DNA of 64,000 bases from Massospora cicadina (lineage: Eukaryota; Entomophthoromycota; Entomophthoromycetes; Entomophthorales; Entomophthoraceae): NCBI GenBank assembly GCA_022478985.1, contig JAKSZP010013320.1, forward strand, positions 1-64,000. Direction: 5' to 3'. The position numbers and the translations under genes are program-made. The notes under the pieces were generated by a model, which worked only from the letters and a program-made list of their open reading frames with translations, had not been told where the DNA came from and ran no database searches. Of the stretch, positions 14,201-61,800 are shown piece by piece. How positions within the stretch are numbered: the first letter of the stretch is position 1; each line of letters begins with the position of its first letter.

Positions 14201-14939
14201 GAAGGTTCAGGAGAAAACATTAATGTCGTTGAGGTATAAAAGGATGCACAACAGCTTTAGTTCCCCAAGAATAGTGTCCATCGCCCATTGTAATGTAGCC
14301 GGGGCATTAAACAGCCCTTGCGACATCTGGGTTGGTTGAAAAAAACCTTTGGACGTGATTACGGCGCATTTCTACTGTTCCTCCGCTGGCAACTTGATTT
14401 GCCAGTAGCCTGAGATCAGGTCCAATGCAGAAAAATAACAAGCTCCCCTAGCCAATCTAAGGCGTCATCAATCCGCAGTAAGGGATATGAGTCCTTTTTG
14501 GTGATGCTGTTGAGCTTTTGGTAGTCAGTTATATCACAGTTAGTTCTGACCCTTTTTTACAATAAGAACGGGAGAAGCCCATGGACTCTTTGGTGGCTTA
14601 AGCATCCCTTGCTCTAGTATTTTGTCCATCTCCTCAGTTACTACTTCTTCCACCACTCTTGGTTGTTAGATTGGCCTTGACCAGATGGGAGAATGATCTC
14701 CAGTGTACACCCTATGAACTACCCCCTGCGCGCATCCTAAATCATGGTCATTGATGGTGAAAATCTCTTTATATTTTTAAAATAAAGCGATTGCACTATC
14801 CTTCTGTGGTTCTGACAACCCCATTAATTCATCGCATGGTACAAAAGCCATTACATTGAGATGTGTTTCAAAAGGCAGATCAAATTCCTTCAGCGACCCA
14901 AACTCATGGACCAAAAGAACCTCCTTGTGGGAATCCAGT
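14200..14939 (-). pseudogene. G3 reverse transcriptase fragment
   Basis: Minus-strand RT read across frameshifts. It includes a CDITDYQKLNSITKKDSYPL-like fingers segment (about 14540-14480), a LDLISGYWQIKLPAEEQ block (about 14430-14370), KCAVI and a catalytic-site remnant equivalent to LNDINVFS near 14220. Immediately after this the sequence jumps to the last part of integrase, so thumb, connection, RNase H and integrase core are lost. The upstream side is cut by the insert at 14940-15698. Confidence 0.82.
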
Positions 14940-15698
14940 TGATTTGTGCTTGCTTGGTACTAGACGCCAGCTGAATTCCACAAAGATTTTATAAAAATTT
15001 TAATATATAAATAAAGTGCTAATAAAAATGGGTTTTTATGGTTTTTATTAAGCATGCAATAAAAGGAAAAACGATATCCCTTGACCTCCAATTATCTAGT
15101 ATTTAAAGTAAATTCGAAGGTTGAGGGGGAATTTGGGAATAGGTTCAGAATAGCCTGCATGAGTCTGAATTAGGAAATGTGCAGGAATAGCATATCATGA
15201 CTTGGGAACTTGCATCAAGGCAGCAGAGTTAAGGATTAGGAATTTTGATTAGCCCTAATGAACCCATGAGGTAACGTTTTTATAAACTTGAGTAAATCAC
15301 CGCCTGAGAAATTTCTTGCACCTTGGGGGACCCCTGCCAAGCCTATAAAAGAGGGGGTCCCCGTGCAGGTGCTTTGAAGGACTTCGTTGAGGTCAAGGGA
15401 GTGCCTTCTGATGATTACCCCAAGGTCCATGGTGCAGTCAGAGAGATCCAACTTTCAGATTTTACTAATGCCCATACAGGTTTTGAACTGGTGATCCCCC
15501 AATTAATGGGGTTCCACCAAAGATTGGCCAGGGACTTTTGGCCAATTTGATCGATTTTTACATTTTTTCTATAATTGTATGAACTCTTAACAGCATCAGA
15601 ATATCGCAAATGGCTGACATTTCCCTTTCTTGGCAGAACTCGACCTACAGCATTTTGATCTCTAGTCTGCAAAGGTAAATGTCCAACACTCCTCAACA
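14940..15698 (+). mobile_element. unclassified 759-bp insertion in G3 (solo LTR or non-autonomous element)
   Basis: Comparison with the same part of G5 (about 23600-23670) shows this stretch is extra. It begins TGATTTGTGC, ends CTCAACA, and is flanked by an imperfect 10-bp duplication (GGAATCCAGT at 14930-14939, GGAATTAAGT at 15699-15708). A TATA-like tataaaag lies near 15345 on the plus strand and is followed by a GC-richer stretch. TG...CA ends suggest an LTR, but a 10-bp duplication does not. No terminal inverted repeat was seen and no other copy is in the window. Confidence 0.6.
15340..15356 (+). promoter_or_regulatory. putative TATA box in the G3 insert
   Basis: The sequence cctataaaagagggg in an otherwise noncoding insert resembles an RNA polymerase II TATA element, as expected in an LTR. 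It is a motif match only. Confidence 0.4.
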
Positions 15699-16143
15699 GG
15701 AATTAAGTGCATATATGCCACTATTTGGTGGCGGATTTGCAGTGGTACCATTTGTAGGTTTGCAAGTAAGACTTTGATCACCCCCCGCCCAGGTAATATA
15801 ATGCCTTGGCCAAGTGGGGCTCAAACTGCAACTGCTAATATAGCCCAATAACCTCCCCATAGAGTCCATCTGGAACTTCTATCACCAAGTCAGTGTTTAC
15901 TATAACTTGATGCCCAGATGGAATAGATATAGGTCCAGTATCTCTGAGTGGCAGCCCATGATATTCATAAATCAGTTGTGGAAGGGCCCAGGTTTTGCCC
16001 TTTATATGATGGTAGCGCACAGGGATTACTTTATTGCTATAAGCTAGATTGATATTCCTCATATGCACCAGATCATTTGGCACTCCGCTAGAGGTGAAGA
16101 GAATTGGGATCTGCTGACCCAATATTTCAAAAGTCTTATCCAT
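15699..16143 (-). pseudogene. G3 dUTPase-like domain between protease and RT
   Basis: Minus-strand reading from about 16080 shows RNINLAYSNKVIPVRYHH, then GPISIPSGHQVIVNTDL and EVPDGLYGEVIG (about 15935-15850). After a stop near 15838 comes a block with GIILPGRGVIKVLLANLQ and a following HQIVAYM. The order of SIP-G, V-TDL-I-P-G-YG-V, G-I-V and KVLL-N matches the beta-barrel of trimeric dUTPases. The catalytic motif normally reading GVID-x2-Y is not intact. The domain directly follows the protease. G5 and G6 have the same domain in the same place, so it is an ancestral part of this clade. Retroviral dUTPases are established; for this clade the function is inference. Confidence 0.68.
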
Positions 16144-16450
16144 AATATCAATAACAGCTCAATAGTGTTGAAAGAAGGCAGTTCCAATTAGCAGATCATA
16201 ATTGCTATTTGGTAACACTATAGCTGGGGCTACCACAATAATAGAACCAAACTGCAACGGAAGTGCACTGTATGCTCCCTCAGAGATCGTGTTATCCAAT
16301 CCAGCAGTTCCATATACCACTCAGTGGTCTACGTCCTGTTTTAATGATAATTTGGCCACCAACTTTGTGGAGACTATATTGATGGGGGCACCGGTATCTA
16401 TGATGGCATGGACTTGGGTTTTAGCTACAACTAGGTCACAGTAAGTACGT
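16144..16450 (-). pseudogene. G3 aspartic protease
   Basis: Minus-strand reading gives IIDTGAPINIVSTKLVAKL (active-site DTG, about 16410-16350), VVYGTAG, and NYDLLIGTAFFQHY (about 16210-16165), the typical retrotransposon protease with DTG and the hydrophobic LIG core. A stop interrupts it near 16330. It matures Gag and Pol. G5 (39223-39600) and G6 (28680-28960) carry the same protease. Confidence 0.88.
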
Positions 16451-22100: not shown

Positions 22101-23490
22101 ATCTTGGTGTAAATAATATCACTTAGATCTCCCATAATTGCAATACTTGGTAGCCTTGACAAGCAATCAGCGTTCTAGTGTTTTGCTCCTGGTCATTGAA
22201 GGATCCCAAAGTCAAAAGCCTGAAGTTTATGGGCCCTACTGGCTAAACGTCTTCAGGCTCCTTGAGGTTCTGCAACAAGCGTAGCAAAGCATGATCCATT
22301 ATGACTTTGAACTTAAATCTGTGCAAATATACTCTAAATTGCTTATATGCATAGCTCACCGCTAAGATCTCCTACTCAGTTACAGTATAGTTACATTCAT
22401 GGAAATTCAGTCTCTGACTGCAGTATTCAACGGAGTGCTTTTCTCCCTCATCGTCCTTTTAAGATAAGACCGCCCCTACAGCGGAAAGGGATGCATCTGT
22501 CTGAAAAATGAGTTCTTTATTGAAATTGGGATAGCGTAACACTGGCGCACTTCTCAGCGCACTTTGGAGTTTATCAAAGGAGCACTGTCACAGTTCCATC
22601 CATTTGAATGCAGCATCCTTCTTTAGTAATTCAAACAGTGGACTTACTTTACAGCTAAAGTTAGGAATGAAGCGCTGGTAGTAGCCGATCAACCCAAAAA
22701 TATCTGAATCTCACGCTTACAGGTGGGCGTAACCATTTTTTGGATAGCCTTTACCTTGGCAGGTTGAGGTTTCAGCCCTGTCGCATCTACTACAAACCCA
22801 TGGTACTCCATCTAGTCCTCAAAAAAGTGTCATTTCTGGGGCTTGATCTTGATATTGGTTTCAGCCAACCGGCGGAATACCTCCTTCAAATGGTTGAGAT
22901 GCTCAGCAAAATATGCAAGAGAATACATTGATGTCATTATGATACACGAGGACACATGACAATTTCAGGTCACTGAGAATGGTATCCTTGGCCCATTGGA
23001 ACGTAGCTGGGGCATTACACAGCCCTTGTGGCATACAGGTCATTTGGGAAAGCCCCTTGGATGAGATAATGGCGCATTTCTCCTGTTCCGCTGCAGGCAA
23101 CTTGATTTGCCAGTAGCCTGATATCAGGTCCATTGCCAAGAAGTGATGGTCTCTGCCTAGTCGGTCAAGAGCATCATTGATCTATGGCAAGGGATAAAAG
23201 TCTTTTTTGGTGATTCTGTTAAGCTTCCAATAGTCTATTACTACCCAGTTGTTGTCATCTTTGTTTTTTAAAATAAGAACAGGCGAAGCCCGCAGACTTT
23301 TTGATGGTTTGAGCACTCCTTGCTCCAACAGCTTCATGATTTCCTCAGTTACTGCTTCCTCAGCTGCCCTCAATAAGCAAATTGGCCGCAACCTGATGAG
23401 GGGATTTATCCCCAGTGGCCAATCGATGGACCACCCCTTTAGCACACCCAAAATCATGGTCATCAACAGCATATATCTCCTTATATTTTT
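22101..23490 (-). pseudogene. G5 reverse transcriptase and RNase H
   Basis: Minus-strand RT. The segment 23472-23182 has EEAVTEEIMKLLEQGVLKPSKS and KNKDDNNWVVIDYWKLNRITKKD. Segment 23139-22903 has MAMDLISGYWQIKLPAAEQEKCAI, MPQGLCNAPATFQWA and YHNDINVFS at the catalytic site. Downstream come HLKEVFRRLAETNIKIKPQK, FLGLIGYYQRFIPNF (about 22700), LIFQTDASLSAVGAVLS (RNase H, about 22500) and CNYTVTE.EILAVSYAYKQFRVYLH (about 22390-22320). This is one of the better preserved pol regions here, though it has several stops. Confidence 0.9.
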
Positions 23491-23590
23491 TTGAGATAGA
23501 ATATCAACTGATCCCTCTGATTTTCTGTTGAACTGGCTAAAATTTTACGCGGAACCACCGTCATTATGCTAGGGTGTGAATTGGTTAGCA

Positions 23591-23961
23591 ACCCAAGTTC
23601 ATCCAGTGACCTGAACTAATGAACCTGAAGGATCTCCTCGAGTGGGGCCAGTGTAAATACGCCACTAATTGATGTCAGCGGATTTTCATCGTTTTGTTCT
23701 GAAGATTTTATTACCAAGACCTTGATCTCCCCATGCCCAGAAAGTATAATGCCTGGGGTCATGTGGGTCTAAAGCCACAATTGCTGATAGGTCCCAATGA
23801 CCTCCCCATATAGCCCATCAGGCACTTCCACCTCTAACTCAGTGTTTATATATACTTGGTGTCCAGAGGGGATAGATATAGAGCCAGCTGCTCTAACTGG
23901 TAGCCCTTAATATATATAAATTTGATGGGGAAGGGCCCAGGTCTTGCACTTTAATAAATGG
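23591..23961 (-). pseudogene. G5 dUTPase-like domain, downstream part
   Basis: Minus-strand reading from 23961 gives CKTWALPHQIYIY, GSISIPSGHQVYINTELEV, EVPDGLYGEVIGTYQQL and GIILSGHGEIKVLVI (about 23760-23710). This parallels the G3 and G6 domains almost block for block. The upstream part (DLVHMGHINLAYG) is at 39188-39260, beyond the G6 insertion. The catalytic GVID-x2-Y motif of active dUTPases is absent or altered. Confidence 0.7.
23957..23961 (+). repeat. AATGG target copy 1
   Basis: First of three AATGG copies (also 24838-24842 and 39183-39187) that bracket the solo LTR and G6 inside the G5 dUTPase-like domain. Confidence 0.75.
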
Positions 23962-24837
23962 TGTCAGACATTCTCTTTCTTGACTCAAGAAAAAGAATGT
24001 TGGAGCTATTAGTGCTCCTGAATCTGCTACCATGATTGTCCCATCTCCTGCCTAATCTTCAAATAATATTATGGATATCAACGATATGAGTACCCACAGC
24101 AAAAAGACCCTGGCAGATTCTCAGTGGAATCCTAACTATCAGAAAAATATGGTCTATAACAAAAAAAAGCTTAAAAAGGTAATAACTTATAATAGGATTA
24201 CTCCAACTTCTCAACCAATTTCGAGGTGTTCAATATTGCATGAATCTGAACCCTCCCAAGGTGAGAAGATTTTAATCGACAATGATAGGGTGCAAATTAA
24301 CCAATCATTACCACATGAGTATGACCACCATTGAGGTGAGTATATTTTACTTGATGATGATAGAGTGCAAATTAATCAATTATTACCATGTGAGTCTGAC
24401 CACCGTCAAGGTGAGAAGATTTTACTCAATGATGATAGGGTGCAAATTAACCAATCATTACCATGTGATTCTGACCACCGCCGAGGTGAGAAGATTTTAC
24501 TCGCTGATGATTGGATACAATTCAACAAATCGTTACCACATGGGTCAGTTTTGCCTCAAAAAATTTATCTTTGATCTGATAGGCTGAAAGACTATATTTC
24601 CTAATTTAGAAGACTCAGCTTTATTTAATTTTGCCTCAAATACCCATGGTCTTTAAAATCTGAACTAGTTTAAATAGGAAAAACTAGTATCAAGAAAAGG
24701 ACCTTCTTTGGTTTGGCCCTGCTTAACAATAAAAAACATAAAAAACTTTAACAAAGCGTTTTCTATTACTTTTATTAAAAAAAGTAAATTTCTGACTATA
24801 AACAAAATATTTGTGGCATCCGTTGGCAGATCTCACA
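23962..24837 (+). mobile_element. solo LTR of an otherwise absent element (876 bp)
   Basis: Starts TGTCAGACATTC, ends GATCTCACA (TG...CA) and is flanked on both sides by AATGG. Near its left end is a perfect-looking inverted repeat (arms 23968-23983 and 23985-24000, one mismatch). A 75-bp tandem repeat lies at about 24240-24548, and an A-rich stretch near 24725-24790 would fit a polyadenylation region. No coding motif is present. Orientation is uncertain; plus is a guess from the A-rich right end. Confidence 0.72.
24240..24548 (+). repeat. 75-bp tandem repeat inside the solo LTR
   Basis: The block gatgatagggtgcaaatt recurs at 24281, 24356, 24431 and, degenerated, 24506, a constant 75-bp step. 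Each unit also contains tgaccaccg..gaggtgagaagattttact. About 3.7 units are present, counting a partial one on the left. Because 75 is a multiple of three the units stay open in two frames, but I see no reason to call them coding. Confidence 0.88.
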
Positions 24838-24842
24838 AATGG
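24838..24842 (+). repeat. AATGG target copy 2
   Basis: Lies between the solo LTR and the G6 5' LTR, and so serves as flank for both insertions. Confidence 0.75.
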
Positions 24843-25282
24843 TATTGGGAAGTTGATATGACTGAACAATATGCTACCCATACCAGTGGATCAGAGGGGA
24901 ATCAAGATGAGTCTTAAGATTTATGGAAAAGGTGAATCGAGGGGAACTAACCAAGATTCGATATAAATGAGAGCTTCTAGAAAAGGGAAGGTGAATAAAA
25001 GACTACCAAGCTGAGGATGCATCCATCTTGGGGAACTGAGATATAAAGAGTCACATGGAGGATTGAGGAAATAAGGTCTTTCCCTATAATTAGGTGGTTG
25101 CAGATAAGTCTGCGATTAGTATCAAATAATAAAGATCAAAATAAGGGGTGATAGCTCCATATACAGTTTATTGAGTTTAATTAAAGTCAGCAATCTTCAT
25201 ATCATCCAATTTGGTTGCTCAGTGGCCAATACTCTGTGCAAACTGACTTGGCGGAATCAATCCTATATGCTGAGAAATAACA
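24843..25282 (+). repeat. G6 5' LTR
   Basis: Matches 38745-39182 throughout, e.g. gagagcttctagaaaaggga, gcagataagtctgcgat, atcttcatatcatccaattt and gacttggcggaatcaatcct. The first bases are worn (TATTGGG versus TTTCAGG in the other copy; other LTRs of the clade begin TGTCA). It ends aaataaca. Confidence 0.92.
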
Positions 25283-25298
25283 GTGGTGCTCACTACAG
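25283..25298 (+). promoter_or_regulatory. G6 primer-binding site
   Basis: gtggtgctcactacag directly follows the 5' LTR, identical to G3 and G5. Confidence 0.75.
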
Positions 25299-25479
25299 GT
25301 GACCACTGGTCAACTGTAGTACTTCAATGCTAGGATATGATGATGAGCCCCCATTAATTATGACAAACTTTGATTGATTCCACACACATTATGTTGATGA
25401 AGTATGGGAGGCAACTAATAATGAACCAGTATATTTACAGTAACTGAACTGGTTAATGATGAGGCTATGATCAATCTAC

Positions 25480-26018
25480 AATTAGGTAACGGCCCTGAGC
25501 TGATGGCCAAGCAACAAGAATGCTCCACAAATGTGACCCCTCAGCAGCTGCGGGATAATATGGAGTGGTTGTTGTGTGGATATCAATTATATGAGGATGA
25601 GACGGGGGAGTATGCCTTATGTTTGTTTTATAAAAAATAAGACCAAGAAAATCGCTACACTATGTACATGTCCTATCTGGACATGGCTACAACAAGATTG
25701 GCTCATCGACTTGGTACTAATAGAATTGAGGATTATCTTGTTGCCTATGTGCAACCGTTGATTCTCCAGCTACTGCGTCTGTTGGCTCACCACTATATAG
25801 ATATTGGAGATGTAATGGGATTCTCTCAAGCACAGCAAAATGATACCTACCTCTTGCTCGACCGCCTCAAATGCTCTTTTTTGGAAGTGCAGGGGGCACT
25901 GGTGCAGATAGACCATCGTGTTGGGGATGTCTGCCAATGATTAGACATCTTGGTACCACAGTTAAATCTAGAGTTACCTCAGGTAATAGGAGAACTAGTT
26001 TAATTGACATGGCCTAAC
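25480..26018 (+). pseudogene. G6 gag, N-terminal part
   Basis: The open stretch 25662-25940 reads MATTRLAHRLGTNRIEDYLV, VQPLILQLLRLLAHHY and LLDRLKCSFLEVQGALVQIDHRVGDV, a helical Gag-type sequence. It lies just after the leader and is cut by the solo LTR at 26024. The pattern (VQPLILQLLRL, then LLDRLK, then QIDHR) recalls the Gag N-terminus of G9 at 51520-51760 (IHPILHHQIQLL, LELYEA, HLDQIDTG). Confidence 0.65.
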
Positions 26019-26023
26019 AGTGG

Positions 26024-26513
26024 TGTTATAAAAATGGCGTTTTTGTTGAGTTACGCCATAATCAATATTACACAGGGTTTAACCCACTGAGTATAAGGAC
26101 CAATGATATGAGGATCGTTGCCCTTGAAACAACAGAAATAAACTTTATTAATAATATGGAGCACTTGCACCACCATACTTCTTTATTTATTATAATAAAT
26201 ACAGCTGATCCTCGCTGTTTCGCCACTCTGAACTGTTAACAACCCAACTCCCTCGATCATCTCATCCCACTTGTATGGTAGCGACATTGGATAGTACCAC
26301 TTTCATGGCTTAGTAATTCACTTCGCCATATCTCATTGGTTCCATCAATTTTATTTATTAATCATGATCGCACAATTTGGCTGGTTTCCCAACAACCCAA
26401 TATCGCCTCTTTTGAGGCGCTCAATTATTCATACTCATAACAACTCGGCAGAATCCATCCATTCCTCCATAATGAATTTGGACTTATCATCCAGTCATAT
26501 TGGAATCGCAACA
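26024..26513 (-). mobile_element. solo LTR of the G3 family inside G6 gag
   Basis: 490 bp, starting TGTTATAAAAATGG and ending GGAATCGCAACA, alignable with the G3 LTRs along its whole length (tttatttattataataaatacagc, catatctcattggttccatcaa, ttttgaggcgctcaa, cttatcatccagtcatattgg). Flanks are AGTGG (26019-26023) and GGTGG (26514-26518), a 4-of-5 duplication differing by one transition. No internal region is present, so it is a product of LTR-LTR recombination. Confidence 0.92.
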
Positions 26514-26518
26514 GGTGG

Positions 26519-28300
26519 AATGGATTCAGAATATAACAATGTTAGGAAGCAATACTGAGCACTTCATGACAGATCTAGCAGAATGGGTGTAAGCGCTCAA
26601 AGCCTAATTACTTAACTTAGGGAAAAAATAACACTGATGGAACAACAAGTGGCGGATCAAGTTAATTCTATCTCAGCTGAATAAACCCAACTTCGCATCA
26701 AATGGAGAAGTCAGCAAACAACAAATAACGCGCTGATCCTTTGGTCAAAGTCCCCTGAATATCTCTAGCTAGTCCATCAGGTTACCTAACTGGAAGTTGT
26801 TTTCCAGGCAAAGCACAGTTGAGCTTTTCCTCTTCCAATTGGTGAGACAATGGAGTATGCGGACATGCAAGGACAGCCTGATACCCTTTGATGAGTCAAC
26901 AAGGAATTGGCTCCAGAACAAGACACCCTCCTTAACCAAATAAATAATGCTAATTATCAAGCGGGTAACGTTAGCTGGCAGCATGCAAAAATACAGAATA
27001 TAATCAAAGAAGTTCTCTCATGACTACAAGCAGTGGAGCAACAACTGAACATTGAGCGGGAATTCTGTCAGGAATTGTAACGTCAACATGAGACACTGCA
27101 ATGGGAATTCCATGATGGATGGTGTAGATGCTATACAGTCAAAACGGAGCAGTTAATCAACAAACATTTTGCAGAGCATGCTGGAGCAGGGGCAGTGGAG
27201 CAGTTAGTGATGATTCAGGGGAAGATTGCTATGGATCAGCTAACAAATATCCCTCAGATGGTGTGATGACCCCCCACACAACACTACTTCTTCCAAGTCC
27301 ATTTTGATGATCTGAGTCCATCTAGCTGGCCATATGATAGTTCACTATGGGTGGTTTCCTTAATCACTCAGGAACCAACTCGCCTGCTTCTTGCAGCAGA
27401 AGCCTGGAGCAAGGCAAAACTGTTCATATTGAGAAACTACTTCCCTTTAGTCATGATGGAAATCTACATGGTTACTTCAAGCAATTTGAATTCGCCATGA
27501 AAGGAGCTTCTGATTGGCGGAAAGCAAAACTGTTGCTGTCCGCCTTCGATGTGAAAAGCGCTAGTCAAGTTACCTGCTACCTTCCAAACAGCTTAGTATC
27601 CTACAAAGAAGTTAAAATGCTTGTTCTTTGGCTGTTTGGGGGTGCAACCAAGGTGGCCCAATTGAAGGCTGACTTCCAACTATACAGTTTCACCAAAACG
27701 AGACCCTTTTAGAATTTGTGGAACGTTACTTGGCAAAAGCACATGTACTACTTGGAGCTAACATATTATCTGCCAAGGATGCTGGTATACCTATGATGGC
27801 AGCTGTCAAACTATATCAGGAGCTATATAATGTTATGTCTCACGTTTTGGACAGAAATGAAGGACTTATTCAAAATTTATAAACACCTTATGTCAACTCT
27901 CCACCACAATCAGTGCCCCTAATGTAGCCCAAAAAATCTCTGCTGTCTCCATACCAAACTCATCAGGATATGGACCGCAGCGACTGAACTATCAACTGCT
28001 GGAACGTATTCATCCCTCATACAAATTAGTGGACCCTTTTCAGCCTTTGTATGCCCTGCCAGTTCATCCATGGCCCTAGAATCATACTGTCAGTTTCTGA
28101 ATTGGCCCTTCCGCTGCAAGTTATATATGTGAACCTTTTTATGAATACCTGCTTCCAATGCGGACAAAAAGGGCATTATGCAGGTAACTGCCCTAACAAC
28201 CCAAAAGTGTATGCGATGCCAACTGAGAAAATTGAGCAGGGGAAAAGCTCAAGCAGAGTAGAGACGGGACGCCCCACCTCCGCTAAGTCCAATTAAATTG
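26519..28300 (+). pseudogene. G6 gag, C-terminal part with zinc knuckle
   Basis: The open segment 27347-27712 has IEKLLPFSHDGNLHGYFKQFEFAMKG-type capsid sequence (read in blocks: HDGNLHGYFKQFE, WRKAKLLLSAFDVKSASQVT). It is followed in another frame by ERYLAKAHVLLGANILSAKDAG and NVMSHVLDRNE near 27720-27860. A CCHC knuckle, CFQCGQKGHYAGNCP, lies at about 28152-28196. Stops and frameshifts occur at several points, including a stop shortly before 26550. Confidence 0.85.
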
Positions 28301-28639
28301 TCCCTAACGATTCCCATGCATCTCTTTGAGTAGGATTTGGAGCTTAATTGGATGATTTGATATACCAACAGCTTCCATCAGATATCCCCGCTTCCATTTC
28401 TTATAGTAGGATTTCTCCCCAAGCTTGGAGTTCTGCCAGGGTGAACAGAAACCATATGCGTGGCAGATCCTGGAACAGACCTGCACAAGCAACACGGATC
28501 CTTCAACAGATGTCACCTCTTTAGTAGGGGTTAACATGGCCATTCTGGTGAAAAAAATCGCTAGTGAGTATCCTCAGGTTGGCAAGGGCATTTCCTCCTT
28601 TTTGAGTAACACAAACCCTTTGACGTACATGTAATAAAC

Positions 28640-28995
28640 ACTGATGGTTCTTCTTACTTGGAATGCACTTACTGCAACATTTTTATTCAAAACATAAAAA
28701 TCCTTGCTATCATAGACATGGGAGCCCCTATGAACTTAGTCTCTACCAGCTTGGTGGATAAGCTTCTGTTGGAACCAAATGTGGACCATCAAGTAGTATA
28801 AGAGACCATTCGGATGTACAGCACTGTGTCATAAGGAGCATATAGTGCATTGCCTTTACAATTTGAGCCAGTTTGGGCTTCCGCTCCAGTGGTGATTCTG
28901 CCAAATAACAACTTTGACATGTTGATCGGTGCAGCATTTATGAGGAAATTTGGTGTTGTAATAAATATGGCAGATAAAAACTTAATATTTTAGGA
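28640..28995 (+). pseudogene. G6 aspartic protease
   Basis: Read across one stop and a frameshift: ILAIIDMGAPMNLVSTSLVDKL (DTG changed to DMG, about 28700-28760), a central GAYSALPLQFE, and NNNFDMLIGAAFMRKFG (about 28905-28955). This matches the G3 protease block for block. The active-site Thr is replaced by Met, so it is inactive. Confidence 0.85.
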
Positions 28996-29079
28996 CAACA
29001 GATCCCCATATATTTTACCTCTTATGGAATCCAAATGGATACGTTCTGCTATAGTCAAATCAATCTAGCGTACAGTGAC

Positions 29080-29480
29080 AGAGTGATTCCTGTTTATTAT
29101 TGACATATGAATATGGCGAACCAGTGCCCTCCACAACTAGATTTATGAGTACAAAGGGATTCCGCTTTGGGCAGTGAGTGCTTTGAGCCTAACATCTGGA
29201 CTCCAGAGTATAGTAGGGACTGAATCAAGATCAATTTCATTAAAGGGCTTTATGGGGAAATTATGGCGCCTCACCAGCACACCCAGATTGAACCACATGT
29301 GGCTCCAGAACTACTGCTCCCTGGGAATGGGGAGGTGAGAGTGCTGCTAGCATATTTACAGAAAAAAACCATAACGATCCAGTGGCACCAAGTAGTGGCT
29401 TATTTACATAAAGCTCGCATAGAGGAAATTCTCCATATTCATGATTTTGGCTCATGGGAGGTTCTTGGACTACCAACATG
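29080..29480 (+). pseudogene. G6 dUTPase-like domain
   Basis: Follows the protease directly. Blocks: YEYKGIPLWAVSALSLTSG (about 29138-29195), SLKGF(Y/M)GE (near 29240), then an open segment from 29263 with LLLPGNGEVRVLLAYLQKK, TITIQWHQVVAYLHKA and EEIL. The last blocks align well with the C-terminal strands of trimeric dUTPases (pattern KVLL-N, then F-I-G-IAQ). The motif that supplies the catalytic Asp (GVID) is replaced by a PGNGE-type sequence, as in G3 and G5, so activity is doubtful even in the ancestor. Confidence 0.7.
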
Positions 29481-29677
29481 CTCATCGTTCAGCACATTAA
29501 CTGTGGTTCCATGGGAAGCACTTACTAGATTATTGGCAGAACAGCAAGGTAAGGCTATGTTGTTATTTGAAAAGTATTGAGATATTTTTGCACATGATGA
29601 TCATGATTTGGGGTGCGCTCATGGGGTGGTACATTGGATAGATGCAGGGGATCACCCTCCTATTTGATCGCAAACTA
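29481..29677 (+). pseudogene. G6 linker before RT
   Basis: Plus-strand sequence between the dUTPase-like domain and the mariner insertion. It reads THSTLTVVPWEALTRLL-like and then a IFAHDDHDLG block, probably the stretch ahead of RT that in related elements contains F-D-G-x-T/C or similar. G1-type RT starts only after the mariner. Confidence 0.5.
29676..29677 (+). repeat. TA duplication, left of mariner
   Basis: TA at 29676-29677 and 30979-30980 bracket the mariner, the universal target duplication of this superfamily. Confidence 0.85.
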
Positions 29678-30978
29678 TGAGGGTAAGTCAAAAAGTAAAG
29701 GCAAAACTAAAAAAAGGAACTTTATATTGTGAAAACAAGATGACAAGTAGCATCATTTCTCTACATAATCTCCCTCAATTTCTATGCACTTGGTCCATCT
29801 CTCGACAAACTATGTAATTCCGTCCTGGAAGAAGATTTGTGGCATCATGCACAGCCACTCGCGCACCGCCTCCACAACCTCATCATCCAACAAAAATTTG
29901 GATTCACACAGGTGCTCCTTCATCGGACCAGAAAAGGTGGGGTTCACTTGGATCTAGGTCAGGACTGTACGGCGGATGCTCCAGCAGCTCAAAACCAAGA
30001 CCTTGAATGCACTGGATCGTTTTCTCGCAGTATGAGGACAGGCATTGTCCTGAAGCAAAAGCACACCTTTTGAAAGTTTTCCTCGCCTCTTTGTTTTGAT
30101 TTTAGGTATCAGAACTCGCAGTAGCTCACAGTAACTGTCACTAAACACTTTTTGACCTTTAGGAGTGTAATGAATTAGAAGTGGGCCTTTCATATCCCAA
30201 AACACTATCATCATCAACTTTCCTGCAGAAACTTGTCTTTTTTACTTTTTTGCTGTAGGCGAGGATGGATGTTTCCACACCATACTCTGCCGCTTACTCT
30301 GTGGTTTGAAGTGATGGACCCACGTCTCATCAACGGTTACTATACGACTGAGAAACTCTTCTCCTTCATCTTCTAAACACCTTAAATGTGATTTCGAAAT
30401 TTCCAAACGTTTCTGTTTGTGCTGGTCTGACAGTCAATGTGGTACCCAACGAGCACACACTTTGCGATAATTCAGTGATTTGTGGATGATTGCAATTGCT
30501 GAACCGTGGCTAATGTTCAATGCATGCTCAATATCATCAATTTTGACATGACAATCATCATGAATCATTCTCTCAACTGTCTCAATGTTCTTGTCCATCT
30601 TCAAAGTGGATGGCCTACCTGAATGCTCTTCATCGCAAATATATTTGACCATCTTTAAAGCGATTTATCCACTCATAAATTTTGCGTTCACTAAGACAGC
30701 TCTCACCATACTGCTGCTGCATTCTGCGAATAATCTCCGCAGGTTTAGTCCCTTCAGAGTGCAGAAAACGTACCACTCCCCTCATTTCTTCCTTGGTGCA
30801 AACGGACAATGGGGCACTCATAATAAAATGCCCTGAAATCACTGCAAATGGAGTTGAGCACTGAAACAAAACAGCTAAAGAACAAAAAACTTTGAGGTTG
30901 AAATTCATTGTTCAGTCAGTGCTGCCATCCATTGCAGCAGGGAAAATAAATTTGCCTTTATTTTTTGACTTACCCTCA
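29678..30978 (-). mobile_element. mariner DNA transposon (1301 bp)
   Basis: Terminal inverted repeats of 28 bp beginning TGAGGGTAAGTCAAAAA are found at 29678-29705 and, inverted, at 30951-30978, with one visible mismatch (G/A). TA lies on both sides. The size and single transposase gene are typical of mariner. It is inserted in G6 just upstream of RT. The TIRs are nearly intact, so this is a fairly recent arrival relative to its host elements. Confidence 0.95.
29760..30908 (-). pseudogene. mariner transposase (DD34D type), disrupted
   Basis: Minus-strand reading from 30908. The N-terminal helix-turn-helix part contains EEMRGVVRFLHSEGTKPAEI and RKIYEWINRFKDG. A frameshift near 30650 follows, then DEEHSGRPST (the linker typical of mariner), IDDIEHALNISHGSA and KVCARWVPH. 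The catalytic domain has VTVDETWVHHF (first Asp, about 30330), LLLQDNACPHTA (second Asp, about 30050) and HPPYSPDL in a shifted frame (third Asp, about 29960). The typical DD34D spacing fits. At least two frameshifts and two stops inactivate it. The motifs are of the animal mauritiana/irritans kind rather than the fungal Fot/pogo kind. Confidence 0.92.
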
Positions 30979-31439
30979 TACTAGATAATCAAAAGCAGTG
31001 GAAGAGGTTGTCTCCAATGAGGTGGATAAAATTATCATGCAAGGGATGCTAGAGCCATCAAACATTCCATGAAATCAACTGTGCTCATTTTAAAGAAAAA
31101 ATATGGCTCAAATCAAGTGGTTATTGACTACCGCAAACTCAATATCTTAAAAAAAGAATTCCTACCCTCTTCCAAAGATTGATGATGCATTAGATCGATT
31201 GGGTGGGTCAAAATATTTTTCCGCCATGAATCTGATCTTGGGGTACTGGCAGATCTATTTTCCATCAGCGAAACAGGAGAAATGTGCTATCATCACTTTG
31301 ATAGGTTTATTCCAGCCGACTTGCATGCCACAAGGGTTGTGCAACGCCCCTGCTACGTTCCAGCGTTCCATTGATACAATTTTAGGTTATTTAAAGCTGT
31401 CCTGCATCCTAGTTTACCTTAATGGCATCAATGTGTTTT
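30979..31439 (+). pseudogene. G6 reverse transcriptase, upstream part
   Basis: Plus-strand RT with AVEEVVSNEVDKI near 31000, then YGSNQVVIDYRKLNI (about 31100-31145). The open segment 31199-31441 holds SKYFSAMNLILGYWQIYFPSAKQEKC, MPQGLCNAPATFQRS and LSCILVYLNGINVF. The last block is the YxDD catalytic motif, degenerated to LNG here. The LINE L2 insertion follows within it. Confidence 0.9.
31421..31439 (+). repeat. left target-site duplication of LINE L2
   Basis: aatggcatcaatgtgtttt matches aatgacatcaatgtgttct at 36700-36718 in 17 of 19 positions; both differences are transitions. Confidence 0.88.
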
Positions 31440-31540
31440 GAATTTATTGCGAGGAAGGCCGACCATGGGACGAACAATTCCAAATTTGACCTAAAAGAAA
31501 CAAAACTTAGTAACAGGGAAGGCACCCCAGAGAAGCGATG

Positions 31541-34500
31541 CTATCTCTTGTTGCCAGCGGAAACGCCACTATGGGGAGGAGGAGGGAACGTGTGAAGGGG
31601 CCGTAGCCACAATTGAAAACGTGTGGAGGAAAGGGTCTGATTTGATGAACCAAACTGGGAACCAGGAGGAGACCAGCTGTCGGCGGCGCAGTGGGAGGTA
31701 TCCAAACATCCACGCCTGAAAGTGGTCCACCAAATGAGACCAGAATCTGTGGACAGCTTCTGGGAGGGTGGGGGTGGAGCCTGCGATGGCATCCAAGACA
31801 ATCGTGTGGATAGTCCACATGGCGATTGCAACCACCAGAGCTCGGAGGGAGGGTGGAAGGGGGAGGCCATTGATAAAGCAAACATATCTATTGACAGACT
31901 GAAGGGATGTGTTTGATCCTGGCCAAGCAGACGTAGAACTTCGCGCCATATCACTCTAGAGGTAGGACACTTCTCCATGTGGTGGAACAGCGTTCCATAC
32001 TGGCCACACATGACGCAGGATGAATGTAAAGCGTTAGAGCGCTCAGCTGTAGGTACACCCTCCTCAGGCAGCGCAACACATGGGAATGGATTTGAGGCTG
32101 CAACAGAGGATGGTGTGCATATTTTAAATAGTCTTCTGAGTCTCAATGGAGTAAGGGATGTCCATCATGTCCAGGTAGTCCACCCTGGATAGGAAATGGG
32201 GTCGTGTGGGGATCACGCCATATTGGATGAGTAGCCCCTGTACCTCTTGTGTGAACTGAGGAGAGGGGCGGCCTCTCTGAACTGTGTGTCCGCTAATACA
32301 AATTCTCCACTCAGCGCTCCGCATGGAGAGGAGGATTCGTTTGTAGTGGGTTTTAGTCCCGTGAGGACCTGTGTCCGATGGGTGTGAAGCCAGGTATTTC
32401 ATCATGGAGTTAGGGTTCGATGGATTGTTAAGGCTAAGGCGCGGTAGAAGTTGGAGCAGGCTGCGCGGGACCAGTGTTGGGAGGGGAGCGTAGGGGCGGT
32501 GACAGCCACAATCCAGGCGCCCAGGATCTTGGTAGCATGGGCTTTGAAGTCAAGCAGGCCCATGCCACCATGATGATGAGGGCCAAACATGACCTCTAGC
32601 CGTACTGGTGGTGGGCGGCCTGACCAAAGCCATCCTTGCAGAAGGGCATACAAGGATTTGAAAAAGCTTGGGGAGAAGGGGATGGCGTGGGCTCCAAACC
32701 AGACTTTAAAGAGGAGCATAGAGTTAGCTAAAACAACCCTGCCAGTAAGGGAAGTAGGGTGGGCTCTGTGGGAGGCGATGCGCTTCTTCACGTTGTCTAG
32801 AATATGACTTTCCATTACTGCTGATGCGTACCCGCCTGCCTCCACCCACACGCCCAGATGGCGGACAGGCCCTATGGTAGGGCGTGGCATGAAGGGGAGC
32901 ACCAGTGGGGTGGTGTGGGGTGAGCTGGGAGGGCGAGCATGTGTGCGAGCAGATGGGCCAGGCTGGGCACTGGTCACTGGGGCCGGGCAGGTTTGATACC
33001 AACCAAGGAGGATGATTTCAGTTTTGGAGGCGTTCAGTGCAGCATTACTTACCCGGGAATACTCCTGGATGAGAGCTTCAAGTGCACGTGCATCTTTATT
33101 ATTAGACACCCCAACCACACAGTCATCTGCAAACGCCATCATCTTGACTGGGGCTTGGCCTGGTACATGGACCCCAGTGAGTTGGGCATTCATGTTTCGA
33201 AGTAGTGGGTCAAGGATGAAGTTTTATAAGAGTGGGCTAAGGGGGTCCCCTTGTCGTAAGCCCCTTTGAGGGTGGACTACTTCCGTTAGGAAGCCAGGGC
33301 GATGTAATGCCATTGTTGCCGATTCTATGAGCAGCATTACCCAGTTGATGAAGCGAGGGGGTAAGCGGAATTGATGGAGGCAGGCCCTGAGGTATTCCCA
33401 GTTTACTCTATCATAAGCCTTCTGTTGGTCCAAGAATACATGTGCCCCAGAGGCTGTGGACTGGCATGCTTTAGCCACAGAGTGCACATTGTCCCAAATC
33501 GGCCTTCTGGGTATGAAACCGAATTGTTCTGGGGAGATGGTGGCAGATGCTACAATCCCTAAATGGTTAGCCATGATTTTAGTTAAAATTTTTGTATCCA
33601 TGTTAGTTAAAGAGATGGGGCGCCAGTTGGCTAAGTCTAGTTTGTCCCCTTTCAAGAAGAGTGTGACAGTGAAGGCCTCTTGTCTCCTGGTAGGAGGCGC
33701 GTTTCCAGATTGCTCTGGTTAAGTGAGGCAAGCAGCAGTGGGGATATATACTTGAAGTACTTTTTATAGAATTCATATGGAATGCCATCTGGGCCTGGGC
33801 ATTTATGATTTAGTGCACCGCGATTGGCTGTCCATAGTTCATTTGAAGTAATAAAATTCATTATTTCTGGGTATTGGAAAACGGTGCAGATGTGGGTTTG
33901 GTCAAAAAATTCCGCCACTTTGGCCGACTGAATTGGATTGGATCAGTATATCTTGGAGTAATACTTTTGTATTTTGATTTCCACTTCGTGGCGTATCCAT
34001 GACAGAATCGTCTGATCTTCACACCTGTGTGCAGGCCACGTTCTGGCATGAAGCAATTTTTTTTAAAAAATATGCGGTGCACTTGTTGCCCTCTGTAATG
34101 CGTTTAGCAGTGTACTGAACACTAACCTGATGTTTGTGTTGCCTTTCGAGTACGTTGAGGTGGGTGGCTGCTTCTGCCCACTTCTAGCCCCATGCAGGGC
34201 TGTAGCCTGTAGCTGGGATGTTGGACTCCAGGTGTGCCAACTCTGCCAGAGCGTGCAAAATGACAGCTGATTTGGCTTGTGAGTGTCTGGAGGAGAGGTG
34301 GCGAGAGTGGCTGATGGTATCCTCTTTGAAGGCTGACCATGTGGAGATGGGGTCCGCGCAAAACAGTGTAACAAACTCTTTTACCAAAGTTGCTGATTCC
34401 ACCTAAGTGGAAAATCCTGGTGATGCAAGTTCGGGAGGGTGGAGTTTGCACCAATGTGGGGCCTTAGCTACTGTGACAGGTAGGTGGTAGGTTATCGAGA

Positions 34501-35187
34501 CCAGCCAGTGGTTGGAGAATTCAATTTTTGTTGTTTGGAAGTGGGAAATGTGAGGTTGAAATTTCGCTGGCATGAGGATAAGGTCAATGCAGGTCATGGA
34601 CCTTAATTTGCCGTTGTGGACATGGGGGCGCATCATGTTTTTGAGCAGTGGGGCTTGGTGCGGCAGCGCATCCATTAACCCATGGCTGGCCTTTAGAACG
34701 CGAAGTTCTATGTGACCCTGGGGGCATGGGAGAAGGAAGGCCAACCGTCCGTGGGTGTGTTTAGCCAACAGTTCATGTCGCCAACTATGAAAGGGTCTGG
34801 GGGTAATGGGAGGGATTTGACTGACGAGAAAAATTCCTGACACTCTCATGCACAGGTTGGGGCATAGATGGTGATGATAGCATGTGCCTTGTCAGCCCAT
34901 GAGAAGGTGACAATGAGGACTCGGCCATTGAGGAAGGATTCTGATGATAAAAATTTGAAAAAATTGTTTTTCTGAACTAGCACCCCACAGTGCTCTGACC
35001 AAAAGGATAGGGATGGGAGGAGCATGGTTTTCCAAGCATCCTTGGAACCTCACAGACAGTGGGACTCCTGGATGGCCAGGATATCCACAGGTAAATTTTT
35101 TTTGTAAAAACTCAGTTTCCTAGCCCAGGATGGTGAGGCCTTGAGTCCGGCAATATTCAATGTCCCTAAAGGGAAGGTTTCCCCCAT
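31541..35187 (-). pseudogene. L2 ORF2: endonuclease, reverse transcriptase, CCHC domain
   Basis: The ATG at 35187 (MGETFPLGTLNIAGL) is the start shared with L1 and L3. The endonuclease includes ILAIQESHC, IYAPT and VGDMNCW (GDxN-type, about 34780) and ends near 34430. The RT spans about 33920-32400: KCPGPDGIPYEFYKKYF (33810-33760), KGDKLDLANWRPISLTN, FLDQQKAYDRVNW (about 33440-33400), RGLRQGDPLSPLL (33265-33225) and AFADD (33134-33120). Segment 33193-32402 is open for 263 codons. The C-terminal part (32146-31541) contains CVMCGQYGTLFHHMEKC. There are only a few frameshifts (near 34400-33900, 33220, 32400 and 32150). Confidence 0.93.
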
Positions 35188-35403
35188 CATACCTTAAGTG
35201 CGAGGGGGTGGGCACCCGGGCCCACTAGCCTCCTCTAGATCCCCACGGGCCTTCACGGCAGCATGGGTGTTTGTAGCAACACTATCAGTAGTTTTGTTAA
35301 TTTTAGCAGAAAGGTTCGCGTTGGCTTTTGCCTTCACTTTTGTTTCCCCGACGTCAAACGAATTTTTTGCAGTGCAGATGAGTTTGGTGCACCAACAATT
35401 GGG

Positions 35404-36620
35404 TCAAAAAAAATTTTCAGGTATGTTGGACCCCAAGTCAGTTTCAACCGGAGCTTGGTTGTAAAGATCAGGAGAATTTGAGTCACCCATCAGATCCTCA
35501 GATTGGGTGGCCCAATTGGCATGGGCTTCCCAATCTGATTGGTTAAGGGATTCCCTAGTTGCTTCCGCCGTGAAGGTTTTAATGTCCTCCTGGCGTTGGG
35601 AGTGTGAGATAGCGTGGTGACTTTGGCCACTTACTTGGCTGTGGCCCTGCAGGCCTGCTTGGCCTTCTTCCGCTCTTTCGGGGAAATAGGTTTTACCAGT
35701 AGGTAGCAGCCTTGTGCTCCCCATGAGAAAGCCTCTTTGGTGCTTGTAGTTGGTTTGTAGTTCGCCTCTCCGCTGGCCATGGCTGCTGAGGGGTGCTCTT
35801 GGAATGTGATGCCCTCCTTGGTGGGTCATACATGTGCCTTATGGCTGAACGCGTCACAGTGGGTGCAGATGGGGGGTGCGCTGTCCACGGTGACCCAGAA
35901 AGGGTGGGTGGTATGCCCTTCAATATTGATATATGTGGAGTGCGGGATCTGGGTTAGATCCTTTGCAATCTCCTCAGTTTGGGTCAGAACTGCGATGGCT
36001 TTGCCGGTGCACAGGTGTGGCATCAGCATAAAGCGTTGCATCTCAAAAGATTGTATTTCGACATATATGGTGAGACAATCTTTCAGGTGCTGCTCCAAAA
36101 TGGCACGTTTTACTGTAGTAGGCAAAAAGTTAAATGTGAGGAAAATTTGGTTGGATTTTGTCCATCTGGTGCATTTGGTTTCAACAACCTGTTGCCCTTT
36201 GGGGAGGTTGATCACTATGCGCACCACAGCAGCTTTGTCTGCTGCCTCTTTGTTTTCGAAACTGAGGTCCAGCCAACCACGTGACATGGAGTGAGGTGTG
36301 ACATACACCACGGTTGGGAAAAAGTGTGCACATCCCCACAAAATTTTTTCCATAAAGCTGTTTGTTGGATGTCCAGAAACACACGGACTCCATATTCCAC
36401 CAACGAGAGTGGTTGGGAGTGCAGCGTGTTGATGTACTGGTTGCATCGCACTTGCCAAGTGAGGATTTCTGTGGAAATAGTGTCTGCCAGTTTTTATCTT
36501 TTTTCTATTCCGCCAGTTTCTCCGGGGCGTTTTCAAATGTTTGAGGCCGCGGGCCTACCACCGGCTCCTCTTACCTTACTTGCCCAACTGCTCCCTGACA
36601 TGGGCGCAGACTAATCTCCT
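35404..36620 (-). pseudogene. L2 ORF1 (Gag-like, zinc knuckle)
   Basis: The minus-strand ATG near 36602 (MSGSSWASKVRG) is followed by a stop and frameshifts. A 236-codon open segment (36536-35826) carries LSFENKEAADKAA, TRWTKSNQIFLTFNFLP, ILEQHLKDCLTIY, and at its end the knuckle CTHCDAFSHKAHVC (about 35863-35822). A further frame (35829-35404) gives the C-terminal basic and Ser/Thr/Gln-rich tail with SQRQEDIKTFTAEATRES. L3 shares that tail. Confidence 0.88.
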
Positions 36621-36699
36621 CTGTGAGATTATTAAACTAGAATCAGACTTGAATTGAATAAGTTGCAAAAGTGATTGCAACGTGAGAGAAAAGTTTTTC

Positions 36700-36718
36700 A
36701 ATGACATCAATGTGTTCT
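36700..36718 (+). repeat. right target-site duplication of LINE L2
   Basis: Partner of 31421-31439. It resumes G6 RT with NDINVFSRIFTEHL. Confidence 0.88.
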
Positions 36719-37500
36719 CGCGGATATTTACAGAGCACCTCGCTCACTTGGAACAAGTGTTCCATCACCTCACTACCACTAATATCAAAATTAAGATTTA
36801 AAAGTATCATTTTTTAAAGAACAATTAGAATACCTCAGGTTTGTTGTGGATCAAATGGGCTTAAAATGCAGCTGTCTATGGTGGAAGCAATAAGCAAGAT
36901 GACTCGTCAAGGTAATAAAAGGGATATTCAAGTGTTTTAGGGATGGTTAGGTACTACCAATGGTTAGCTTCCAAATTTCAGGTGCATTGGGGCCCTGATT
37001 TTTGAGTTGTTAAAGAAAAATGCTTCTTTTGATTGGACAGAGCGATGTTAAATGCTTTTGACATGTTGCAAACTGTGTTAGCAAGAGCCCCCATTTTGCA
37101 ATATCTTAACTTTGACAAACAGTTCATAGTGCAAATGTACGCATCCCTCTCCGCTATAGGAACAGTATTATCCTAGAAAGATGATGACGGCGTGGAGCAC
37201 CCTGTCACATTCTGTAGTCAAAGCTTGAACTGTCACAAACAATACTACACCATGACTGATGGGAGCATTTAGCAGTGATCTACGCTTACAAACAGTTTCA
37301 GGTATATCCACATGGGGTAAGATTCCAAGTAGTGATGGATCATGCTTCCTTGCACTGACTACAGAATCTGCGTGAACCAGAAGGGCGGCTCACATGTTGG
37401 GCTCTGAAGCTCCAGATGTATGATTTTGAGATTATACACCATCCAGGAGCAAAACAAAAAAATGCAGATTGTCTTTCTCTGCTGCCAACAGTTGCTATCA
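36700..37500 (+). pseudogene. G6 reverse transcriptase thumb and RNase H
   Basis: Plus-strand reading: NDINVFSRIFTEHLAHLEQVF (36705-36760), TTTNIKIKI, then ALQTVLARAPILQYLNFDKQF (about 37070-37125). RNase H follows: SLSAIGTVLS, HPVTFCSQSLNCHKQYYTM (about 37200-37255), AVIYAYKQFQVYPHG, VVMDHASLH and IIHHPGAKQKNADCLS (about 37430-37480). Some stops interrupt it. Confidence 0.88.
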
Positions 37501-38735
37501 TGACAGATTTAGCTGACATAATGTACAAGAAGATGGTGGCGAACAAATACCAGGATGAGCCGCAGCAGGTGATCAAGGTATTAGATGGACTCAGGGAGGA
37601 TACTTTCCTATTTGGGGAAGAACTATATAAGTGGATTGGAGACTTGACGCTGAATTTCCCTAAACCTTTGGCTAGACCCGCAATTATTATGGATGCTCAT
37701 TAGCTATAGATCATGGAATATTGTGGAAAATGTTGGAGTTTTTGCGACCCCATTACTACTGATAGAGCATGCATTATGACATATTGGAAACGGTTAGTTG
37801 TTGACATCAGTTTAAAGTGGAAAAGCCTCTTCACAAGAAGACCACATACCAGCTGGTAAACCCTAGTTCTCCTGGCACACCATTTTCATTGATGTAGTGG
37901 GACCTCTGCTGACTAGCTCCAATCAATCCAGTAATATATAATCATCACCATCGATCATCTGACCCAATGGCGGAGGCCAGGGCTTTTACAATTTGGGCGT
38001 GGTCACCAAAACCAAGTTTATTATGGAGTGTGTTATACAGCAACATGGCTGCCCGCAGTTCATTCTTATGGACAACCAAACCAATTTCTCTTCACACATC
38101 CTACCAAAGTTGAATGAGTTGATGGCGATCCGCGGGGTTTTGACCACCCCCTATCATCTGGAATCAAATGGAATGGTGGAATGGGTCAACGGAACCCTAA
38201 TGAACATACTCCATAAATTGGTAAAGGATCAACCCTTTGAATGGAGTGCCCTTCTACCTATGGCTGTGTTTGTGTACAATATAGCTATCATTTGTCCACT
38301 GGTAAGAGCCCGTACCAAATGCTAAATGGTCGACATCTGGGTCTGCCCGCCTTGATTTATTCATATGTAGAGAACACTGGTGGTGTGGACCCTCAGCGAT
38401 ATTTATAGACTCTTATGGATACATTGATCAAGCTGCAAATGGAAGCCTATTCAACCAGTTAGCCAAGAAGATTTGTAATCAGTCAGTTGATCAGATGAGA
38501 TGGAGTAGACTTCCGCTGTTTGCTGTAGGGGACCATGTTTTATTCCATGAACAGCACGTAATTTGGGCAGAAAAACAAGCTCCTGAACGTCTTGTCCAGG
38601 CCGTTCAAGATAATTGAGAAGACTGGCATGGATGTCTAAACTATCAAGTAACCTGCCTGGGGTCAGATTATCAACCAAGTTCACATGAAGTTCCTCTGAG
38701 CATATATACAGCAAGAGCATATCGTCCAGTCAAAG
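37501..38735 (+). pseudogene. G6 integrase
   Basis: The N-terminal segment 37501-37703 has EELYKWIGDLTLNFPKPLARP and a decayed H2C2 zinc finger (SCCHQFKVEKP near 37800). In the core, TIDHLTQW marks the first Asp (about 37950). An open segment at 37993-38325 holds QQHGCPQFILMDNQTNF (second Asp) and YHLESNGMVEWVNGTL (catalytic Glu). The C-terminus reads MLNGRHLGLPALIYSYVENTGG and NKLLNVLSRPFKIIEKTGMD (GPY-type, GP changed to RP). Several stops are present. Confidence 0.88.
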
Positions 38736-38744
38736 GTGGGGTAA
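38728..38744 (+). promoter_or_regulatory. G6 polypurine tract
   Basis: caaaggtggggtaat directly precedes the 3' LTR and parallels the G3 and G5 tracts. Confidence 0.65.
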
Positions 38745-39182
38745 TTTCAGGAAGTTGATATGACTGGATGATATGCTACCCATACCAAAAGATTGGAGAT
38801 AGAATTGAGATGTGTGTCAAGATTTACAGAAAGGCGAATTGAGGGGAATTACACCAAGATTTAATATTTTGAGAGCTTCTAGAAAAGGGAAAATGAATAA
38901 AAGACTACCAAGCCGAGGATGCATCTGGCTTGGGGAACCAAGATATAAATAGTCACATGGAGGATTTAGGAAAGAAGGTCTTTCCCTGTGATTAAGTGTT
39001 TGCAGATAAGTCTGCGATTTTTATTAAATAATAAAGTTTGAAATAAGGGCGATAGCTCCATATACAGTTAAGGAGTTTTATTGAAGTCAGCGATCTTCAT
39101 ATCATCCAATTTGGTTGCTAAGTGTCTAATACTCTGTGCAAAATGACTTGGCGGAATCAATCCTATACGCCAAAAAATAACA
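38745..39182 (+). repeat. G6 3' LTR
   Basis: Partner of 24843-25282. Begins TTTCAGGAAG and ends aaataaca, followed by AATGG. Confidence 0.92.
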
Positions 39183-39187
39183 AATGG
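39183..39187 (+). repeat. AATGG target copy 3
   Basis: Right-hand flank of G6. G5 sequence resumes here in the register expected from G3. Confidence 0.75.
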
Positions 39188-39610
39188 TAATGAACTCAGA
39201 TCACTAATCACCATATGCAAGGTTAATGTGACCCATGTGCACCAGATCCTTTGGCAATACACTGGAAGTGAAGTAGATTGGTATCCTCTGCCCTCAGAAT
39301 TTCAAAGTTCTCCGCTGTCATATCAACAACAGTCCTGAAGTGGCGCATGAAAGATGTTCCAATTAACAGTTCATAGTACTTGTTTGGTAGCACTATGGCT
39401 GGGGCTACAATGACAACGACCCAAACTGCAAAGGGTAGCTCGCTGTAAGCAACTTCTAAGACCGTGCTTTCCGCACCTGCAGTCCCATACACCATATGAT
39501 GTTCCACGTCAGGCTTTAATGCCAATTTCGCCACCAACTTTGTGGACACTAGGTTGATTAGTCGCCCAGATCAATTATAGCGCAAACTCAGGTTTTTGCT
39601 ACAACAATGT
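39188..39610 (-). pseudogene. G5 protease and start of dUTPase-like domain
   Basis: The minus-strand open segment 39549-39223 gives STKLVAKLALKPDVEHHMVYG, SELPFAVW and NKYYELLIGTSFMRHF. It matches the G3 protease. The DTG active site lies just upstream, near 39590, in a damaged frame. At 39260-39188 DLVHMGHINLAYG starts the dUTPase-like domain, which continues at 23961. Confidence 0.85.
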
Positions 39611-61280: not shown

Positions 61281-61282
61281 TC

Positions 61283-61800
61283 CATAAGGCGCACGCATGC
61301 CCCATCAAGGAGGGCGTCACATTCCAAGTGCACCCCTCAGTGGCCATGGCCAGCGGAGAGGCGCACTACAAACCAACTGCAAGCACCAAGGAGGCTTTCC
61401 CATGGGGAGCACAAGGCTGCTACCTATTGGTAAAGCCCATCTCCCCGCAGGAGCGGAAGAAGGCCAAGCAGGCCCATAGGGCCGCGGCCAAGGAAGTGGC
61501 CAAGGCCACCACCGCCATCCTACACTCACAACGCCAGGAGGACATGGAGACCTTCACAGTGGAAGCGACTCAGGAATCCATCAACCAATCAGATTGGGAA
61601 GCCCATGCTGAGCGGGCCACTTAATCTGAGGATCCGATGGGAGATTTGATCTCACCCAATTGCTGCACCCAAGCTCCGATCAAAACTGACTTGGGACCTA
61701 TCCCAACTGAAAAAAAATTTTTGACCCACTCAATGGTGCACCAAACTCATCTGCACCGCAAAAAATTCATCCGACGTCAGGAAAACAAAAAGTGAAGGCC
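61283..61800 (+). pseudogene. L3 ORF1, C-terminal end
   Basis: Opens with HKAHACPIKEG, the last half of the CCHC knuckle. The segment 61277-61624 continues with TKEAFPWGAQGCYLLVKPIS, ERKKAKQAHRAAAKEVAKA (basic) and HSQRQEDMETFTVEATQES, as in L2. After a stop at 61622 the tail is in other frames. Confidence 0.87.

What the first reader, a model, noticed from the sequence alone, without database searches (positions are those of the whole stretch)
15699..16143. dUTPase-like domain between protease and reverse transcriptase in a clade of Ty3/gypsy elements
G3 (15699-16143), G5 (39188-39260 plus 23591-23961) and G6 (29080-29480) all carry, directly after the protease, a roughly 130-residue domain. 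Its block order (SIPSGHQV, NTDL, EVPDGLYGEVIG, GI-LPG, IKVLL-LQ, HQVVAYL) follows the beta-barrel of trimeric dUTPases. Retroviral dUTPases sit upstream of protease (betaretroviruses) or between RNase H and integrase (non-primate lentiviruses), so this protease-dUTPase-RT order is unusual. The catalytic GVID-x2-Y motif is replaced by a PG-G-E/V type sequence in all three. That suggests the ancestor used the fold for something other than dUTP hydrolysis, such as Pol assembly or binding. G2 and G4 lack the domain.
Basis: partly seen in the sequence, partly recalled or inferred. Interest (0 to 1): 0.78.

Follow-up and report, generated by a model that had tools for sequence, protein, structure and literature searches.

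The report
Dead dUTPase fold inside retrotransposon polyprotein
An abundant jumping-gene family in this probably fungal genome carries, between its protein-cutting and DNA-copying enzymes, a domain that kept the shape of a DNA-precursor-cleaning enzyme but lost its active site, and other elements of the same type seem to carry a more worn version of the same fold.

The parts
16129..16413 (-). G3 protease (active-site DTGA at 16387-16404)
   Evidence: tblastn with L049 ORF residues 1-95; motif scan
15689..16035 (-). G3 dUTPase-like domain (frame changes near 15.8 kb)
   Evidence: two tblastn matches in two frames, reference 1-211 and 201-243
14552..14938 (-). G3 post-dUTPase tail and start of reverse transcriptase, after a ~750-base interruption
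   Evidence: tblastn reference 238-366, E 6e-49
39178..39570 (-). G5 protease and linker (upstream half)
   Evidence: tblastn reference 7-137
23511..23963 (-). G5 dUTPase-like domain and tail (downstream half)
   Evidence: tblastn reference 134-284, E 2.5e-63; PF00692 15.3 bits, below cut-off
23224..23412 (-). G5 start of reverse transcriptase
   Evidence: tblastn reference 317-379
23962..39182 (.). stretch that splits G5, TG...CA ends, AATGG on both sides (nesting inside it not resolved)
28700..28984 (+). G6 protease (active site DMGA at 28708-28726)
   Evidence: tblastn reference 1-188; motif scan
29077..29436 (+). G6 dUTPase-like domain (limits approximate)
   Evidence: tblastn reference 95-331 at 28981-29691, E 7e-57
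30983..31137 (+). G6 reverse transcriptase start, after an interruption
   Evidence: tblastn reference 328-379, two frames

Best explanation
The domain is a catalytically dead dUTPase-fold module built into the Pol polyprotein of an abundant Ty3/gypsy lineage, between protease and reverse transcriptase. It descends from a trimeric-type dUTPase. The active-site residues were lost before the family amplified, and the fold was kept by purifying selection because it does a job in Pol that is not dUTP hydrolysis. The most likely job is structural: to hold or oligomerise the Pol/RT product, as the trimer-forming fold does elsewhere, or to set the spacing between PR and RT. Shown here: homology, fold (predicted), position, loss of catalytic residues across copies, past purifying selection. 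Inferred: no dUTPase activity (about 0.9), a structural or assembly role (about 0.5), trimerisation in particular (about 0.35).
Against: No activity or oligomer was tested. The AF2 model of this clade is of low confidence (mean pLDDT 53, pTM 0.55). The loci that score highest against PF00692 keep motif III D..Y in 18 of 20 (chosen by that score, so biased towards it), so some members might still bind nucleotide. dN/dS says only that the domain was constrained while the elements were active. The 29 loci were chosen by likeness of this very domain, which lowers its values; in the RT-chosen set dUT is 0.37 against 0.25 in PR, for G6 0.41, and near-fixed differences between two subgroups are 12.0 silent to 6.0 changing in dUT against 11.5 to 2.5 in PR, so the domain is less constrained than PR.
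Confidence: 0.8

Rival explanations
1. A working dUTPase: the enzyme is active in intact members and the window copies are merely decayed.
For: dUTPase fold and homology; another set of loci keeps the motif III Asp and Tyr in 18 of 20.
Against: No Asp at motif I or III in 32 and 12 copies; the places of motifs II and IV carry other residues and motif V is not seen. Among the 150 scored PF00692 matches (of 10,109 candidates) all but the canonical L001 (147.5 bits) and two adjacent fragments on one contig (L002, L003; 53-57 bits) score 43.3 bits or less.
Confidence: 0.05
2. Non-catalytic binder: the pocket was reshaped (fixed ILPGH-type loop) to bind a nucleotide, nucleic acid or host protein, instead of giving structure.
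For: The replaced loop is conserved: G in 31 of 32 and H in 30 of 32 copies, and it recurs in E. muscae and metagenome relatives. Enzymatically inactive dUTPases of DNA viruses can have regulatory functions (passage of PMC4531489).
Against: No partner or ligand evidence; the generic spacers do not share this loop.
Confidence: 0.3
3. An ordinary RT N-terminal extension or spacer that resembles dUTPase by chance.
For: Single window copies score low (G5 E 0.018, G3 and G6 no Pfam match).
Against: Profile and fold results.
Confidence: 0.02

Closest known systems
dUTPase-bearing fungal Ty3/gypsy elements (PosPlaTy3-5 of Postia; Phanerochaete; Tuber), PMC2864245
   Same: Ty3/gypsy, fungal host, dUTPase domain between PR and RT in PosPlaTy3-5 (passages read).
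   Different: The passages read do not speak of lost catalytic residues; here the motifs are lost, and the host group is probably another one (inferred).
Bdelloid rotifer Juno, Vesta and TelKA elements, PMC5408684
   Same: dUTPase domain between PR and RT in all three (passages read).
   Different: Catalytic state not given in the passages read; different host and lineage.
Planarian giant gypsy-like element, PMC6431247, and the metavirus proxy of the PNMA ancestor, PMC11011659
   Same: dUTPase or dUTPase-like domain in Ty3/gypsy Pol (passages read); PR-RT position stated for the planarian element.
   Different: No statement on activity in the passages read.
Bovine immunodeficiency virus dUTPase-related protein, PMC4261571
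   Same: Retroelement dUTPase relative without detectable activity yet needed for replication (abstract).
   Different: Only 74 residues, placed between RT and IN (PMC4531489).
Herpesvirus dUTPase-related proteins (Pfam Herpes_ORF11; ORF10 of structure 7byf)
   Different: Free-standing viral proteins; their biology is recalled, not looked up here.

Membership tests
Trimeric dUTPase family (PF00692) | Sequence homology above the curated Pfam cut-off (22 bits) | tested here: met
   L049 26.6 bits or 24.8 in the longer frame, L023 35.8, L028 35.9; L032 of the window clade 20.8, just below; window copies themselves below or no match
Trimeric dUTPase family (PF00692) | dUTPase beta-barrel fold | tested here: met
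Trimeric dUTPase family (PF00692) | Motif I Asp (AGxDL) | tested here: not met
   Pro in 29 of 32 copies, Asp in 0
Trimeric dUTPase family (PF00692) | Motif II (RSG) | tested here: not met
   GPYQQ-type sequence at that place
Trimeric dUTPase family (PF00692) | Motif III catalytic Asp and Tyr (GVIDxxYxG) | tested here: not met
   Leu in 31 of 32, Tyr in 1, Asp in 0; the other loci keep D..Y in 18 of 20
Trimeric dUTPase family (PF00692) | Motif IV (RIAQ) | tested here: not met
   mostly HQ[IV][IV]AYL
Trimeric dUTPase family (PF00692) | Motif V glycine-rich arm (GFGSTG) | tested here: not met
   none between domain and RT in the L049 frame, read directly
Trimeric dUTPase family (PF00692) | Homotrimer and dUTP hydrolysis | not testable with these tools
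   needs protein
Ty3/gypsy elements with dUTPase domain between PR and RT | PR, dUTPase-like domain and RT in that order in one Pol frame | tested here: met
   L049 381-aa open frame; the RT start was recognised by eye and by P0003 matches in the window
Ty3/gypsy elements with dUTPase domain between PR and RT | RNase H and integrase after RT | not tested
   a relative of the other clade (L028) shows integrase-like ORF text by eye; not scanned
Generic Ty3/gypsy PR-RT spacers as dUTPase homologues | Profile match to dUTPases standing out of the whole PDB, and predicted fold | tested here: met
   direct profile match to the window clade is weaker (hhalign prob 16-75) and random halves range from 10 to 95

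The most novel reading that the evidence does not exclude
A degenerate, non-catalytic dUTPase fold is a general and overlooked module of Ty3/gypsy Pol, sitting between protease and RT in a large part of the group. The 'rare' dUTPase-bearing elements in print are then only its least worn members, and retroviral dUTPases may descend from this ancestral module instead of from repeated captures of host genes.
Probability: 0.45. Interest if true: 0.78.

Novelty: new variant of a known kind. Interest (0 to 1): 0.6.

Why it matters
It turns an unexplained spacer of Ty3/gypsy Pol into a recognisable fold, and shows a dUTPase fold kept by selection after its chemistry was lost, in a family with 150 scored copies (and tens of thousands of unscored first-look candidates) in one genome. 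It makes a question testable: whether retroviral dUTPases were captured several times or inherited from a Ty3/gypsy ancestor.

Tried and rejected
Considered and rejected: chance resemblance; decay artefact of three old copies (open and RT-chosen copies lack the same residues); active enzyme. Single-copy searches alone were too weak (G3 and G6 no match) and would have misled. The third protein search, with the spacer of P0035, returned only itself, so the generic spacers could not be traced to named species. The search for related loci with the canonical dUTPase found no relative in viral contigs. No RT tree was built: the RT piece shared with L049 is about 60 residues. Trimerisation was not modelled. 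Papers: passages found by search terms in PMC2864245, PMC5408684, PMC1142308, PMC2774666, PMC11105155, PMC4531489 (12 of 26 places), PMC11011659 and PMC6431247; abstract and passages of PMC4261571; part 1 of 3 of the text of PMC9584336. 'Not found in print' for the generic spacers and for the lost active site rests on searches of an open-access library, of which I saw listings and the passages named; Novikova and Blinov 2008 and Riccioni 2008 were not read. dUTPase motif numbering and the catalytic roles of the residues are partly recalled, partly from PMC4531489.

Full report
What is there. On an open relative from the same genome, L049 (381 aa, one frame), Pfam finds protease PF13975 at 3-83 and dUTPase PF00692 at 153-253, and the frame then runs into an RT start that I recognised by eye. 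Mapping the window on it gives G3 at 16413-15689 and 14938-14552 (minus), G5 at 39570-39178 then 23963-23224 (minus) and G6 at 28700-29691 and 30983-31137 (plus); a metagenome Pol protein (P0003) matches the RT parts of G3, G5 and G6 as well. All three have frameshifts or stops. If the host is as inferred below, the assembly is nanopore-based, so single frame changes need not all be real.

Active site. Over 32 copies (29 loci and the three window copies) the motif III Asp is Leu in 31 and Tyr in 1; the motif I Asp is Pro in 29 and otherwise Leu, Ser or a stop. The places of motifs II and IV carry other, mostly conserved residues, and I saw no motif V. These loci were chosen for likeness to the domain. 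I therefore took 12 copies at steps down the 150 rows of an RT-only search (two of the 12 are also in the list): 12 of 12 carry the domain and 0 of 12 have either Asp. Relatives in Entomophthora muscae and in metagenomes have the same changed loop. The 20 loci L009-L028, which rank highest in the PF00692 search after the canonical genes, keep motif III D..Y in 18, D..H in one and N..Y in one; at motif I, where I could read it, they have Pro, Ser or Thr, not Asp. In that search all but the canonical L001 (147.5 bits) and two adjacent fragments (L002, L003) score 43.3 bits or less.

Selection. Pairwise dN/dS in the domain is 0.21 against 0.24 in PR and 0.23 in RT (29 loci); in the RT-chosen set 0.37 against 0.25 in PR (12 loci); in the other clade 0.35 against 0.34 in PR (20 loci). 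The first set is biased by its choice. G6 against the 29 loci gives 0.41 in the domain, and near-fixed differences between two subgroups (9 and 16 loci) are 12.0 silent to 6.0 changing in the domain against 11.5 to 2.5 in PR. So the domain was under purifying selection while the elements were active, although the chemistry was gone, but probably somewhat less so than PR.

Host. The open frame of L023 finds one protein, from Massospora cicadina (56% over 18% of the query); L049 finds Entomophthora muscae proteins. G000 has 1.470 Gb in 16,968 contigs; the published M. cicadina assembly has 1.489 Gb in 19,694, 92% transposable elements, 73% of these Ty3. M. cicadina or a near relative is the likely host; this is inference. 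The E. muscae genome paper lists PF00692 among enriched retroviral domains, in one sentence.

Novelty. PR-dUTPase-RT order is known in fungi, rotifers and planarians. New as far as my searches of an open-access library show: the documented loss of the active site with the fold kept under selection, and the evidence that PR-RT spacers of other Ty3/gypsy Pol proteins are worn dUTPase folds. That this is general and ancestral is my boldest reading and is not shown.

Noticed in passing
L001:1378-1950 (minus), G000:C9994: A canonical 191-aa dUTPase (146.7 bits) on a 19.5-kb contig beside a 295-aa ORF of unknown nature; fragments that look like a second canonical dUTPase at C6901:2001-2377 (L002, L003).
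   Followed up: partly
window 33130-35844 and 61282-64000: Two stretches, 84% identical over 2.7 kb in opposite orientation, of an element with an RVT_1 reverse transcriptase match.
   Followed up: no
L009-L028: dUTPase-bearing gypsy loci of other clades in the same genome that keep the motif III Asp and Tyr in 18 of 20 but not the motif I Asp.
   Followed up: partly
P0042: A Pol protein from a JGI source with what look like intact dUTPase motifs IV and V directly before RT, that is, an apparently active-type relative (read by eye).
   Followed up: no
window 24848-25282 and 38750-39182: 85% identical 435-base repeats inside the stretch that splits G5; the first lies 886 bases inside its left end, so more than one insertion event is likely.
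   Followed up: no
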